Shown here: piece by piece, positions 57,830 to 64,000 of the stretch
Position numbering within the stretch: position 1 is the first letter of the stretch
Layout: the number at the start of each line of letters is the position of its first letter
NCBI RefSeq assembly: GCF_001642805.2
Contig: NZ_CP016948.1
Location: 3,038,001 to 3,102,000, forward strand
Direction: 5' to 3'
Source: Serratia surfactantfaciens
GTDB lineage: Bacteria > Pseudomonadota > Gammaproteobacteria > Enterobacterales > Enterobacteriaceae
Length of the DNA: 64,000 nt
The notes under the pieces: generated by a model
Told to the model about the DNA's origin: nothing
What the model saw: only the letters and a program-made list of their open reading frames with translations
The model's database searches: none
Program-made: the position numbers and the translations under genes

Positions 57830-58186
57830 TTATTCGGTTAACCGGCGCAGTTGCTCCGCGGCTTGTTCGACGTTGAGGCGGCCTTGAGCAGCCTCGACCG
57901 TGAGTTCAACCAGCTGCGCATCTTCACGCAGTGCAATGCCATTGATACCGAGAAATAACGCCATGCTTTGGAAGGCCGTGCGCTTATTGCCATCAAGAAA
58001 AATATGACCATGACTGATAGCAATGAGATAAAGTGCGGCCAAACGGTAAACGTCGGTGACGTTCTCATAGTGGTAAGCATTGAGCACGCGGTTGGCTACG
58101 GCCTCAACTTTACTGCCATCCTGGCGGCCGTGAGGCACAATTTCAGCATTGAATTCCGCAATATCCTCTGCGGTCAAAAAGATCAT
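57830..58186 (-). CDS. doc: Doc-type toxin (Fic/Doc fold)
   Basis: The 118-residue protein has the Doc motif HGHIFLDGNKRTAF (HxFxDGNKR), the active loop of Doc kinases that phosphorylate elongation factor Tu. It is the distal gene of a toxin-antitoxin pair, overlapping the antitoxin by 4 bases. The motif is intact, so the toxin looks functional. The conserved acid replaces the second Gly/Asn of Fic AMP-transferases, supporting Doc rather than Fic. Confidence 0.9.
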   Translation of the reverse strand: MIFLTAEDIAEFNAEIVPHGRQDGSKVEAVANRVLNAYHYENVTDVYRLAALYLIAISHGHIFLDGNKRTAFQSMALFLGINGIALREDAQLVELTVEAAQGRLNVEQAAEQLRRLTE

Positions 58187-58392
58187 CTATTGGCCAGCGC
58201 CTTAATCGTATCCGCGTGTTTAGCCTGAATGCGCGCTTTCACCTTGGCTTTGACCAAAACCTCATAGTCTGCCTTACTGATGATGTAAACCTCATCGTGT
58301 CCGCGGCGCGTCACTTCCACCGGCTGTTTTTGCGCTTCCAAAAGCACCTCGGCAAGGTTGTTTCTGGCCGCCGTGTAGCTAATCGTAGTCAT
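58183..58392 (-). CDS. phd: Phd/YefM-type antitoxin
   Basis: This 69-residue protein starts MTTISYTAARNNLAEVL and has VTRRGHDEVYIISKADYE, the Phd/YefM DNA-binding N-terminus; the basic helical tail (KAKVKARIQAKHADTI) should neutralise Doc. The longer frame upstream crosses the palindromic operator, so the ATG with AGGTAAAG before it was chosen. It is first in the operon, the usual Phd-Doc order. Confidence 0.88.
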   Translation of the reverse strand: MTTISYTAARNNLAEVLLEAQKQPVEVTRRGHDEVYIISKADYEVLVKAKVKARIQAKHADTIKALANR

Positions 58393-58402
58393 TTTCTTTA
58401 CC

Positions 58403-58414
58403 TGTACATGTACA
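58403..58414. promoter_or_regulatory. Palindrome TGTACATGTACA before the antitoxin gene
   Basis: This perfect 12-base palindrome, part of a longer TGTACATGTACATG run, begins 11 bases upstream of the antitoxin start. Phd binds such palindromes to repress its own operon. Confidence 0.6.
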
Positions 58415-58450
58415 TGTTTGACGATTATTTGTACCACGTCCGCTGGAAAT

Positions 58451-58483
58451 AAAAAAGCCCCCGGCGCCAAGGGCGCAGGGGGC
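58451..58483 (-). terminator. Intrinsic terminator of maeB
   Basis: GCCCCC-GCGCC and GGCGC-GGGGGC form a long GC stem with one mismatch and a 3-base loop; six T follow on the minus strand. It lies 19 bases past the maeB stop. Confidence 0.9.
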
Positions 58484-58501: not shown

Positions 58502-60781
<2,280 letters not shown>

Positions 60782-60996: not shown

Positions 60997-61260
60997 TCAG
61001 TGCGACGGCAGCGTGGCGCGCCAGGCGTTGAGCGTCTCCACCTGGCCGGCGCAAATGTGTAACGAGGTTTGTAACGCCAGGGTATAGCTTACCGCATCAC
61101 CCCAGGTCTCCCCCTGCAGCTGCGGCTGTTCGCAGGGCGCGAACACCGACTCAGGGGGCAACAGCGGCACGGCCTGCGGCGCCGGCGGCCGGGCGCAGGA
61201 GCTCAAGCACAGCGCCAGGCAGAGGCCGAGCGGCGCAGGGATCGTTTTTAATCGCTTCAC
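60997..61260 (-). CDS. chiZ: Rz1-like outer-membrane spanin lipoprotein ChiZ
   Basis: The 87-residue protein starts with GTG (GAGGA 7 bases upstream) and has a lipoprotein signal with lipobox CLSSC at about residues 18-22, then a proline-rich mature start (ARPPAPQAVPLLPP). That is the layout of Rz1 o-spanins. Its first 110 bases overlap the end of chiY in another frame, as phage Rz/Rz1 pairs do. In S. marcescens it forms, with ChiY, the envelope-spanning part of the chitinase release system (type 10 secretion). Two further cysteines may form a disulfide. Confidence 0.85.
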   Translation of the reverse strand: MKRLKTIPAPLGLCLALCLSSCARPPAPQAVPLLPPESVFAPCEQPQLQGETWGDAVSYTLALQTSLHICAGQVETLNAWRATLPSH

Positions 61261-61531
61261 GGTATTTCCTCTGATAAGCGTCGTGTTGCTGGCGCAGCTG
61301 CTGTTCCTGCCGCTGCTGCGCCGCCATCAGCGCGCGGTTTTGCGCGTCCTGAGTCTGCAAGGTGGCGATAAGCCCCGCCTGCTGCGCCAGGCTTTTCTGC
61401 AATTCCGCCGCCTGTTGCCGCGCGGAGGCCAACTGGTGCGACAACAGCGAGCTATAGCCGCCGAGGCAAATGGCCGCCAGCAACAGCAACAACAACCCGC
61501 CCTGCGCCAGCTTCTGCAGCCAGCCGCTCAT
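61151..61531 (-). CDS. chiY: Rz-like inner-membrane spanin ChiY
   Basis: The 126-residue protein has one N-terminal membrane helix (GGLLLLLLAAICLGGY) followed by a glutamine/alanine-rich coiled coil (about residues 30-90), the i-spanin plan. Its ATG overlaps the chiX stop (ATGA), and its 3' part overlaps chiZ. With ChiZ it is expected to bridge inner and outer membranes in the final release step. A longer frame upstream runs inside chiX and is not used. Confidence 0.85.
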   Translation of the reverse strand: MSGWLQKLAQGGLLLLLLAAICLGGYSSLLSHQLASARQQAAELQKSLAQQAGLIATLQTQDAQNRALMAAQQRQEQQLRQQHDAYQRKYREAIKNDPCAARPLPGAVLELLRPAAGAAGRAAVAP

Positions 61532-61929
61532 GCCGGGTAGTCCCGAAACGGCAGCTGGAAGTGCGGGCCATCCTTGAGGGTTTTCCATTCGCCGCCCCAT
61601 TCGACGTTGATACAGCATTCACGCGCCGCGCGCCGTACCGCCACCGCAATCTGCGCATAGTAATCCCACTCCCAGGAGACCACGCCCGCCGGCATCGCCA
61701 CCACGTCCACCGCATGGCCGGTCAGGTGGCGGCTGCGCAGCGTTTGGCTGCTGCCGGCACGCACCATTTCCCGCTGGCGTGCCATGCTGCGCAGCCCCTC
61801 GCTGACGGAAAACGGCACCAGTGAATAACGCAGCGCCAAACGAATAACGCGCACCAAATCCGGATGCACGCCACGCAGATTTTCTTCGCTGCGGGCGGTA
61901 AAGCGAATATCTTCGATGTCATTTAACAT
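61528..61929 (-). CDS. chiX: Peptidoglycan endopeptidase ChiX (M15 family)
   Basis: This 133-residue enzyme has no signal peptide. The M15 zinc site is visible: His68 and Asp75 in SRHLTGHAVD, His123 in DGPHFQL, with Asp120 as likely catalytic neighbour. ChiX of S. marcescens cleaves the L-Ala-D-Glu bond in peptidoglycan and is required to secrete chitinases. It overlaps chiW by 11 bases and chiY by 4. It should not be confused with the unrelated ChiX small RNA of other enterobacteria. The ribosome site is weak, so translation is probably coupled to chiW. Confidence 0.92.
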   Translation of the reverse strand: MLNDIEDIRFTARSEENLRGVHPDLVRVIRLALRYSLVPFSVSEGLRSMARQREMVRAGSSQTLRSRHLTGHAVDVVAMPAGVVSWEWDYYAQIAVAVRRAARECCINVEWGGEWKTLKDGPHFQLPFRDYPA

Positions 61930-62245
61930 TTTTAAACCCCGTCTTTTTACCGATAAATTTTTTAATTAGGGCGTTGATGTAATCCGCCCCCATAAAACCA
62001 ATCAGTACGCTGGCCAAATTCGCCCATTTTAATTCCAGGCCCCTCAGCGCTAACGCATCGCGCACCGTCCAGGCCAACAGCGCACACATCGCCGCATTCA
62101 ATAAGCGTCGCCGAATGCCCACGTTGCGATAGGCGCCATGTAATAACGCCATCACGCCAGCCAGAATGGCGTTCAATACCGGCTGAAGATATTCACATAC
62201 TCGCTGGACTATTAAGCCAACAGCGTCAGGCTCTATGCTGGACAT
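61919..62245 (-). CDS. chiW: Holin-like membrane protein ChiW
   Basis: This 108-residue protein has three hydrophobic helices (about residues 22-40, 47-64 and 75-95) and a lysine-rich tail (KKFIGKKTGFKNVK), the form of class I phage holins. It is thought to let ChiX cross the inner membrane. AAGGAG lies 8 bases before the ATG, the best ribosome site of the four genes. It heads chiWXYZ, divergent from chiB. Confidence 0.92.
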   Translation of the reverse strand: MSSIEPDAVGLIVQRVCEYLQPVLNAILAGVMALLHGAYRNVGIRRRLLNAAMCALLAWTVRDALALRGLELKWANLASVLIGFMGADYINALIKKFIGKKTGFKNVK

Positions 62246-62537
62246 AGCTCATCTCCTTTTTATTTTTAATTAAATGCCAATCACGGCCGGTGGGACATCG
62301 GATAATCAGAATCTAGTTAAGGATGCTATTACAAAGCAAATGAATAAATACAGGACCTATGGTCGAATTCATTCATGCTGAACGCTGGCACAACAGATTA
62401 GCGCCCGTGGATGCGACAGTTAATAAAATTTCATTATTATCGTGATTTATTTCGACTTTTGTTTTTACGAAAAATAAACATTAATGGCGGTGGGAAATAC
62501 TTCCCCATCATAAAAACATCCACTCTGGAGAAATACC
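62246..62537. promoter_or_regulatory. Divergent control region chiW / chiB
   Basis: This 292-base gap is AT-rich, in contrast to the flanking genes. AATGAAT (62339-62345) and ATTCATT (62367-62373) are perfect 7-bp inverted arms 21 bases apart near its centre. Chitinase genes of S. marcescens are under the LysR regulator ChiR and chitin induction; whether these arms bind it is unknown. The chiB side ends in GGAG 7 bases before the start. Confidence 0.5.
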
Positions 62538-64000
62538 ATGTCCACACGCAAAGCCGTTATTGGGTATTATTTTATTCCAACCAACCAAATCAATAATTAC
62601 ACCGAGTCCGATACCTCCATCGTGCCATTCCCGGTATCCAACATCACGCCGGCCAAAGCCAAACAGCTGACGCACATCAACTTCTCTTTCCTGGATATCA
62701 ACAGCAACCTGGAATGCGCCTGGGATCCGGCCACCAACGACGCCAAAGCGCGCGATGTGGTCAAGCGCCTGACCGCGCTCAAAGCGCACAACCCCAACCT
62801 GCGCATCATGTTCTCCATCGGCGGCTGGTACTACTCCAACGATCTGGGCGTGTCGCACGCCAACTACGTCAACGCGGTGAAAACCCCGGCGTCGCGCACC
62901 AAGTTCGCCCAATCCTGCGTACGCATCATGAAGGATTACGGCTTCGACGGCGTGGACATCGACTGGGAGTATCCGCAAGCGGCAGAAGTGGACGGCTTCA
63001 TCGCCGCGCTGCAAGAGATCCGCACCCTGCTGAATCAGCAAACCGTCGCTGACGGCCGCCAGGCGCTGCCGTATCAGTTGACCATCGCCGGCGCCGGCGG
63101 CGCCTTCTTCCTGTCGCGCTATTACAGCAAGCTGGCGCAGATCGTCGCGCCGCTCGATTACATCAACCTGATGACCTACGATCTGGCCGGCCCCTGGGAG
63201 AAGATCACCAACCACCAGGCGGCGCTGTTCGGCGACGCGGCCGGGCCGACCTTCTACAATGCGCTGCGCGAAGCCAATCTGGGCTGGAGCTGGGAAGAGC
63301 TGACCCGCGCCTTCCCCAGCCCGTTCAGCCTGACGGTCGATGCCGCGGTGCAGCAACACCTGATGATGGAAGGGGTGCCGAGCGCCAAAATCGTGATGGG
63401 CGTGCCGTTTTACGGCCGCGCCTTCAAGGGCGTCAGCGGCGGCAACGGCGGGCAATACAGCAGCCACAGCACGCCGGGCGAAGATCCGTATCCGAGCACC
63501 GACTACTGGCTGGTGGGCTGCGAAGAGTGTGTGCGCGACAAGGATCCGCGCATCGCGTCCTATCGCCAGCTGGAGCAGATGCTGCAGGGCAACTACGGCT
63601 ATCAGCGGTTGTGGAACGACAAGACCAAAACCCCTTACCTGTATCATGCGCAGAACGGGCTGTTCGTCACCTATGACGACGCCGAGAGCTTCAAATACAA
63701 AGCGAAGTACATCAAGCAGCAGCAGCTGGGCGGCGTGATGTTCTGGCATCTGGGGCAAGACAACCGCAACGGCGATCTGCTGGCCGCGCTGGATCGCTAT
63801 TTCAACGCCGCGGACTACGACGACAGCCAGCTGGATATGGGCACCGGCCTGCGCTACACCGGCGTCGGCCCCGGCAACCTGCCTATCATGACGGCGCCGG
63901 CCTACGTGCCGGGCACCATTTACGCGCAGGGCGCGCTGGTGTCCTATCAGGGTTACGTCTGGCAGACCAAGTGGGGGTACATCACCTCTGCGCCGGGTTC
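62538..64000 (+). CDS. chiB: Chitinase B (GH18 exo-chitinase), 3' end cut by window
   Basis: The visible 487 residues correspond to S. marcescens ChiB (499 residues). The GH18 barrel holds the catalytic motif DGVDIDWE with Asp140, Asp142 and acid Glu144, plus SIGGW, NLMTYDL and the late MFWHLGQDN. From about residue 450 the chitin-binding CBM5/12 domain begins (APAYVPGTIYAQGALVSYQG). It has no classical signal peptide and is released with the aid of ChiWXYZ. It degrades chitin processively, giving chitobiose. The start has GGAG upstream. Confidence 0.98.
   Translation, partial: MSTRKAVIGYYFIPTNQINNYTESDTSIVPFPVSNITPAKAKQLTHINFSFLDINSNLECAWDPATNDAKARDVVKRLTALKAHNPNLRIMFSIGGWYYSNDLGVSHANYVNAVKTPASRTKFAQSCVRIMKDYGFDGVDIDWEYPQAAEVDGFIAALQEIRTLLNQQTVADGRQALPYQLTIAGAGGAFFLSRYYSKLAQIVAPLDYINLMTYDLAGPWEKITNHQAALFGDAAGPTFYNALREANLGWSWEELTRAFPSPFSLTVDAAVQQHLMMEGVPSAKIVMGVPFYGRAFKGVSGGNGGQYSSHSTPGEDPYPSTDYWLVGCEECVRDKDPRIASYRQLEQMLQGNYGYQRLWNDKTKTPYLYHAQNGLFVTYDDAESFKYKAKYIKQQQLGGVMFWHLGQDNRNGDLLAALDRYFNAADYDDSQLDMGTGLRYTGVGPGNLPIMTAPAYVPGTIYAQGALVSYQGYVWQTKWGYITSAPG

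What the first reader, a model, noticed from the sequence alone, without database searches (positions are those of the whole stretch)
60997..62245. Lysis-cassette-like secretion module chiWXYZ beside chiB
Four overlapping minus-strand genes encode a holin-like protein, an M15 endopeptidase, an i-spanin and an o-spanin. They have the plan of a phage lysis cassette, but no phage head, tail, integrase or attachment site is present. They lie back to back with chitinase B. This is the module described in S. marcescens as type 10 secretion, which turns controlled envelope opening into protein release. The 110-base out-of-frame overlap of chiY and chiZ keeps the Rz/Rz1 pattern.
Basis: partly seen in the sequence, partly recalled or inferred. 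Interest (0 to 1): 0.75.

Follow-up and report, generated by a model that had tools for sequence, protein, structure and literature searches.

The report
Known Serratia chitinase-release lysis cassette
This is the well-studied set of four phage-derived genes with which Serratia releases chitin-digesting enzymes, probably by opening a few of its own cells; it is intact and ordinary here, though relatives show that its neighbours and parts can be lost one by one.

Summary
Window 60997-62245 (-) encodes ChiW (lambda-type holin), ChiX (M15 endopeptidase), ChiY (i-spanin) and ChiZ (o-spanin), overlapping by 11, 4 and 110 bases and divergent from chiB. It is the published S. marcescens chiWXYZ type 10 secretion locus: ChiX differs from the crystallised ChiX at 4 of 132 aligned residues and keeps its zinc and catalytic residues. 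No phage structural gene was recognised nearby. In the genus, 26 of 30 genomes carry chiW, chiX and chiB together, and in all 26 the four frames are open with nearly the same overlaps; the other four genomes are small (1.5-3.6 Mb). Outside the chiY/chiZ overlap all four genes show purifying selection. Beyond chiB lie chiR and cbp21.

Additions: chiB is not a fixed partner. Serratia sp. AKBS12 and two of seven genomes of a related genus have cbp21-chiR-chiWXYZ-maeB without chiB; two more of the seven keep only chiWX and seem to share one chiYZ deletion. Print disagrees on whether release is lytic; I favour lysis of a ChiR-expressing minority (about 0.7). Novelty: already known.

The parts
61919..62245 (-). 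chiW, lambda-type holin, 108 aa, one start codon (no dual-start motif)
   Evidence: PF05106 1.1e-20, TIGR01594 5.6e-22, phrog_126 2.6e-24; no second Met in residues 2-8 in 31 of 31 ChiW
61528..61929 (-). chiX, M15/LAS-family L-Ala-D-Glu endopeptidase, 133 aa; R47, H68, D75, D120, H123 kept; residue 7 is Asp (Glu in the crystallised protein)
   Evidence: PDB 5opz ChiX E 9.6e-84; residues against those named in PMC5778951
61151..61531 (-). chiY, Rz-like i-spanin with an N-terminal hydrophobic segment, 126 aa
   Evidence: phrog_214 Rz-like spanin 1.4e-20; hydrophobic segment in 29 of 29 ChiY
60997..61260 (-). chiZ, Rz1/LysC-like lipoprotein o-spanin, GTG start, lipobox LSSC, 87 aa
   Evidence: PF23793 LysC 4.9e-20, phrog_456 2.1e-19; lipobox pattern in 29 of 29 ChiZ
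61151..61260 (-). 110-base out-of-frame overlap of the chiY 3' end and the chiZ 5' end
   Evidence: 110 or 113 bases in 26 of 26 Serratia loci; mean dS 0.16-0.24 there against 0.65-0.71 outside it
62246..62537 (.). divergent chiW-chiB intergenic region with conserved blocks; no motif shared with the chiR-cbp21 spacer found
   Evidence: alignment of 15 of 26 loci; 14-mer comparison not above shuffles
62538..64000 (+). chiB, GH18 chitinase; start inside the window, last bases beyond it (stop at 64037)
   Evidence: PF00704 3.9e-80; L003 2539-4038
58502..60781 (-). maeB (malic enzyme), conserved chromosomal neighbour that fixes the site
   Evidence: PF00390 and PF01515; adjacent to the cassette in L004-L017 and in the loci that have the cassette

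Best explanation
It is the S. marcescens chiWXYZ type 10 secretion locus. Under ChiR control a minority of cells make chitinases, CBP21 and the cassette together; ChiW opens the inner membrane and lets the signal-less ChiX into the periplasm; ChiX cuts the peptidoglycan peptides; ChiY and ChiZ, linked across the periplasm, then merge the inner and outer membranes, so the cell breaks open and its load of chitinolytic enzymes is released for its kin. Shown here: gene content, gene order, conservation and selection. Shown by others: ChiX activity, need for ChiW and ChiX, ChiR control, lysis after induction. Inferred: that lysis, rather than non-lytic passage, is the normal mode in this strain.
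For: Family and structure matches; catalytic and zinc residues kept. Cassette beside chiB in 26 of 30 genus genomes, frames open in 26 of 26. Purifying selection: dN/dS 0.072 (ChiW), 0.072 (ChiX), 0.118 and 0.135 (ChiY and ChiZ outside the overlap), so the spanins are kept as functional parts. chiR (LysR type) and cbp21 (LPMO) lie just beyond chiB. PMC10847048 section 10: ChiR-induced S. marcescens releases normally non-exported proteins in a cassette-dependent way and turns into vesicles; lysed cells 67 of 798 (8%) before and 1,413 of 2,393 (59%) after anaerobic triggering. In Y. entomophaga, spanin knockouts were largely blocked in release. About 1% of S. marcescens cells expressed a ChiX reporter, as told in PMC10101115.
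Against: Db10 work reported non-lytic release, and spanin-free Salmonella systems secrete without detectable lysis. In chiW or chiX mutants the chitinolytic proteins are reported to gather in the periplasm, though ChiB and ChiC lack signal peptides, which lysis of the whole cell does not explain. The lytic result used arabinose-driven ChiR and anaerobic stress. In Y. entomophaga an optimised cassette lacking either spanin still lysed cells, so selection on spanins does not by itself prove the last step. Nothing was expressed or measured here.
Confidence: 0.72

Rival explanations
1. Same locus, non-lytic mode: ChiW only carries ChiX to the periplasm, ChiX loosens the wall, and periplasmic chitinases cross the outer membrane of living cells; the spanins merely help.
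For: PMC5778951 passages: a signal peptide put on ChiX rescues a chiW mutant, and the chitinolytic proteins gather in the periplasm of chiW or chiX mutants. Non-lytic Salmonella systems and Db10 reports. Two related-genus species keep intact chiWX after losing chiYZ, with dN/dS about 0.09 (ChiX) and 0.15 (ChiW) between them (one pair).
Against: Cassette-dependent release of normally non-exported proteins and spanin-type vesicles by tomography. ChiY and ChiZ are intact in 26 of 26 Serratia loci and selected. The step across the outer membrane stays unexplained.
Confidence: 0.24
2. Remnant of a prophage that happens to lie beside chiB.
For: The proteins have phage relatives: 1151 phage records match ChiX (21 in the 60-80% identity band, none higher, best listed 62.7%) and 169 match ChiW, all under 60% and none covering 80% of it. 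A locus in G024, prophage-like by eye, has ChiX- and ChiY-like genes at 62-63%.
Against: No phage structural or integration gene recognised nearby; no megablast match in 50,697 phage records; frames open in 26 of 26 and dN/dS well below 1 outside the overlap; same site beside maeB in Serratia and two outside lineages.
Confidence: 0.02

Closest known systems
Serratia marcescens ChiWXYZ type 10 secretion system (SmaLC)
   Same: Gene content and chitinase neighbourhood; ChiX almost identical to 5opz; ChiR is part of the described system.
   Different: Four ChiX substitutions in 132 aligned residues, among them Glu7 to Asp, a residue described as a crystal-contact zinc ligand. Db10 ChiW, ChiY and ChiZ were not aligned: no record named Db10 was fetched.
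Yersinia entomophaga YenLC / ambiguous lysis cluster
   Same: Holin, endolysin described as strikingly similar to ChiX, i-spanin and o-spanin outside a prophage; no dual-start holin.
   Different: Other regulator (RoeA) and cargo, pH-gated release. Sequences not compared here.
Salmonella T10SS of the stm0014-stm0018 chitinase operon
   Same: Holin and peptidoglycan hydrolase beside a chitinase gene, and a LysR-type gene.
   Different: Hydrolase similar to the muramidase TtsA instead of an M15 endopeptidase, ToxR-like ChiR, no spanins.
Phage P88 (Peduoviridae) lysis genes
   Same: Holin, M15 endolysin and a DUF2570 protein in a row; ChiX 62.7%.
   Different: Set among capsid, tail and baseplate genes; P88 is not among the phage matches to ChiY at E 1e-5, which are two records of one Aeromonas phage.

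Membership tests
Type 10 secretion system (chiWXYZ type) | Holin gene next to a peptidoglycan hydrolase gene | tested here: met
Type 10 secretion system (chiWXYZ type) | Hydrolase without a signal peptide, with LAS zinc site and catalytic Asp120 | tested here: met
   Residues R47, H68, D75, D120, H123 present in the window; SRH and DGPHFQ motifs in 31 of 31 ChiX; N-terminus hydrophilic by eye
Type 10 secretion system (chiWXYZ type) | Holin with three transmembrane segments | tested here: inconclusive
   Three are predicted in PMC5778951; my simple hydropathy scan gave broad overlapping segments and does not settle the number
Type 10 secretion system (chiWXYZ type) | Two-component spanin (optional in the class) | tested here: met
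Type 10 secretion system (chiWXYZ type) | Outside any prophage | tested here: met
   No phage genes recognised in ORF lists read by eye
Type 10 secretion system (chiWXYZ type) | Cargo and regulator genes close by | tested here: met
   chiB, chiR, cbp21
Type 10 secretion system (chiWXYZ type) | Cassette needed for chitinase release | not testable with these tools
   Reported for S. marcescens
Functional prophage or prophage lysis cassette | Adjacent structural or integration genes | tested here: not met
Lambda S holin with dual start | Two start codons giving holin and antiholin | tested here: not met
   No second Met in residues 2-8 in 31 of 31 ChiW

The most novel reading that the evidence does not exclude
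In a related genus the same locus was trimmed by one shared deletion of chiYZ to a bare holin plus endopeptidase pair that stayed under purifying selection: a spanin-free release system derived from a lytic one, giving a natural test of whether spanins decide between lysis and secretion.
Probability: 0.35. Interest if true: 0.5.

Novelty: already known. Interest (0 to 1): 0.3.

Why it matters
The locus is the archetype of type 10 secretion, so the window copy adds no new system. The comparison bears on the open question of lytic or non-lytic release: Serratia keeps its spanins under selection, whereas two species of a related genus seem to have lost them in one deletion and kept the other two genes. 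It also shows that chiR and cbp21, rather than chiB, accompany the full cassette in every lineage compared.

Tried and rejected
Shared ChiR-site motif: 14-mers with up to 2 mismatches between the chiW-chiB and chiR-cbp21 spacers gave 3 hits against 0 to 10 in ten shuffles: nothing found; the chiA, chiC and chiD stretches were fetched and their ORFs listed, but not compared for motifs. Plasmid-borne cassette: the one plasmid match (NZ_MT039221.1) carries maeB, hemF and amiA and ends just after tal, so I read it as a mislabelled chromosome piece. An rRNA operon as cause of the contig ends beside the locus: no Rfam match in five of the nine such loci, nor in L017; near-identical tkt copies explain them better. 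Hamilton 2014 is not held. No structure was predicted, since ChiX is solved.

Changed on checking: the confidence in the lytic statement was lowered from 0.78 to 0.72, and the non-lytic rival raised from 0.20 to 0.24, because the periplasmic build-up in mutants counts against it and had been left out.

Full report
What is there. The four frames are as described: chiW 61919-62245, chiX 61528-61929, chiY 61151-61531, chiZ 60997-61260, all on the minus strand. The ORF listed from 61618 for chiY is too long; the chiX stop and the chiY start share ATGA, and ChiY is 126 aa in 13, 127 aa in 12 and 129 aa in 1 of 26 Serratia loci. Families: ChiW is a lambda-type holin, ChiX an M15 endopeptidase, ChiY and ChiZ Rz- and Rz1-like spanins; in NCBIfam only ChiW passes a curated cut-off. 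ChiX matches the solved S. marcescens ChiX (5opz) at E 9.6e-84 over residues 2-133, with four differences. The residues that PMC5778951 names (Arg47, His68, Asp75, Asp120, His123; sections 12 and 15 part 1 read) are all present. Residue 7, a zinc ligand only through crystal contacts in that paper, is Asp here, as in many relatives.

Surroundings. chiB is divergent, with 292 bases between it and chiW. Beyond the window end lie a LysR-type gene (chiR; PF03466 and PF00126) and an LPMO gene (cbp21; PF03067), then genes that look by eye like a dihydroxyacetone-kinase group, tal and tkt. The names chiR and cbp21 follow the papers and my own knowledge. On the other side are maeB, a Phd-Doc pair, and two genes that I name mmuM and mmuP after the annotation of NZ_MT039221.1. 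No phage structural or integration gene was recognised; those lists were read by eye and only partly run against Pfam. No megablast match exists among 50,697 phage records. The locus is 94.1-95.1% identical over 4 kb to five named loci of the S. marcescens group (L004-L008), which places the window there.

Conservation. In the genus search, 26 of 30 genomes have ChiX at 85% or more, ChiW at 87% or more and ChiB at 93% or more, close together on one contig by the listed coordinates. The four without are 1.5-3.6 Mb genomes; one of them has a distant holin (43%). All 26 loci have open frames whose lengths agree within three residues, with overlaps of 11, 4 and 110 or 113 bases; starts were taken nearest to the window protein's start. 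Summed pairwise dN/dS over pairs with dS above 0.05: ChiW 0.072 (322 of 325 pairs), ChiX 0.072 (323), ChiY 0.192 (323), ChiZ 0.304 (320). Outside the overlap ChiY is 0.118 and ChiZ 0.135; inside it the ratios are 0.59 and 1.04, where synonymous change is held down. The pairs are not independent, so these are descriptive values.

Outside Serratia. Among 392 family genomes, 32 have a ChiW match at E 1e-15 or better; apart from Serratia only G060 (79%) and G106 (75%) exceed 50%. G060 is Serratia sp. AKBS12, by equal contig length with L017. It has cbp21-chiR-chiWXYZ-maeB without chiB, and its best GH18 hit is 61.8 bits, against 269.1 bits for chiB in the window genome. In the genus of G106, 7 genomes were searched with ChiX: 6 match, 4 of them at 79-83%. 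G416 and G417 have cbp21-chiR-chiWXYZ-maeB without chiB; G106 and G419 have only chiW and chiX beside maeB. G362 has maeB next to the sugar-binding-type regulator gene and no cassette; G418 and G299 have no ChiX above 46% and no cassette part in the 1.5 kb before maeB. G106 and G419 have closely alike spacers between chiX and maeB, both lacking chiYZ, so one shared deletion is likely. Their ChiX differ by dN 0.041 and dS 0.442, their ChiW by dN 0.037 and dS 0.248. LPMO_10 matches: none in G106, G362, G418, G299; one in G419, away from the cassette. A maeB tree of 19 rows (8 of the 13 named Serratia loci L004-L016, with the window, G003, G017, G060 and the seven genomes) puts G419 outside G106 plus G362 (99/98), so loss of chiYZ first and of chiWX later in G362 is the simple reading. 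The chiB-bearing group has weak support (53/20), so gain of chiB in Serratia against losses outside it is open; the tree is rooted at the midpoint and built from one linked gene.

Origin. Phage relatives of ChiX are common, none at 80% identity or more, best listed 62.7%; those of ChiW are all under 60% and none covers 80% of it; ChiY finds one Aeromonas phage in two records, where the spanin follows a holin and a gene annotated as chitinase A. A locus in G024, prophage-like by eye, has ChiX- and ChiY-like genes at 62-63% and a partial ChiZ match. The cassette therefore looks like an old, possibly mosaic, capture; this is inference.

Mechanism. PMC5778951 (abstract, sections 12 and 15 part 1, passages) shows ChiX activity and its need for secretion, and tells that mutants gather the chitinolytic proteins in the periplasm. 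PMC10847048 (passages and section 10) shows lytic, spanin-type release in induced S. marcescens. PMC13284979 (abstract and passages) and PMC10109510 (passages) report non-lytic Salmonella systems, which lack spanins, and the former recalls the Db10 non-lytic work. PMC10101115 (passages) finds that an optimised Yersinia cassette lyses even without a spanin. Hamilton 2014, Costa 2019 and Palmer 2021 were seen only as cited there. I favour lysis of a ChiR-expressing minority in Serratia: the spanins are under selection, and normally non-exported proteins come out with the chitinases. The periplasmic build-up is the strongest point against it. The spanin-free form in the related genus is compatible with either mode, or with slow decay.

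Literature. Five searches place the locus firmly in print. I did not see the chiB-less or chiYZ-less loci in those listings; I did not search for them by genus, whose name is unknown to me. Spanin-free type 10 systems as such are known.

Noticed in passing
window 57830-58470 (-): A Phd-Doc toxin-antitoxin pair (PF02604, PF02661) sits between mmuM and maeB; a Doc match at this site appears in only 2 of 14 named loci (L005, where it is in two pieces, and L009).
   Followed up: partly
L003 14073-16067, L176 1772-3766, L175 983-2437 (outside the window): The transketolase gene beyond the chi locus has a 99.8% identical second copy and a 100% identical 1455-base third piece elsewhere in the genome; contigs of nine named loci (L008-L016) end at tal or tkt, as does a 'plasmid' record.
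   Followed up: partly
L171 (NZ_MT039221.1 254420-276248): A record called plasmid unnamed2 of Serratia proteamaculans carries maeB, hemF, amiA and the chi locus and looks like a chromosome piece; its chiZ is annotated as a 57-aa hypothetical protein, shorter than the 87-88 aa o-spanin frame of the 26 Serratia loci.
   Followed up: partly
L127 7693-9914 (G197): An orphan ChiW-like holin (47%) lies divergent from a CBP21-like LPMO gene (59%), with a regulator carrying a Trans_reg_C domain beside it; no hydrolase gene recognised by eye in the 18 kb.
   Followed up: partly
L133 9065-11222 (G076): A LysR gene, a holin (48% to ChiW) and an M15 endopeptidase (62% to ChiX) lie among ordinary-looking chromosomal genes without a ChiY or ChiZ match; this genome has no GH18 or LPMO_10 match.
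   Followed up: partly
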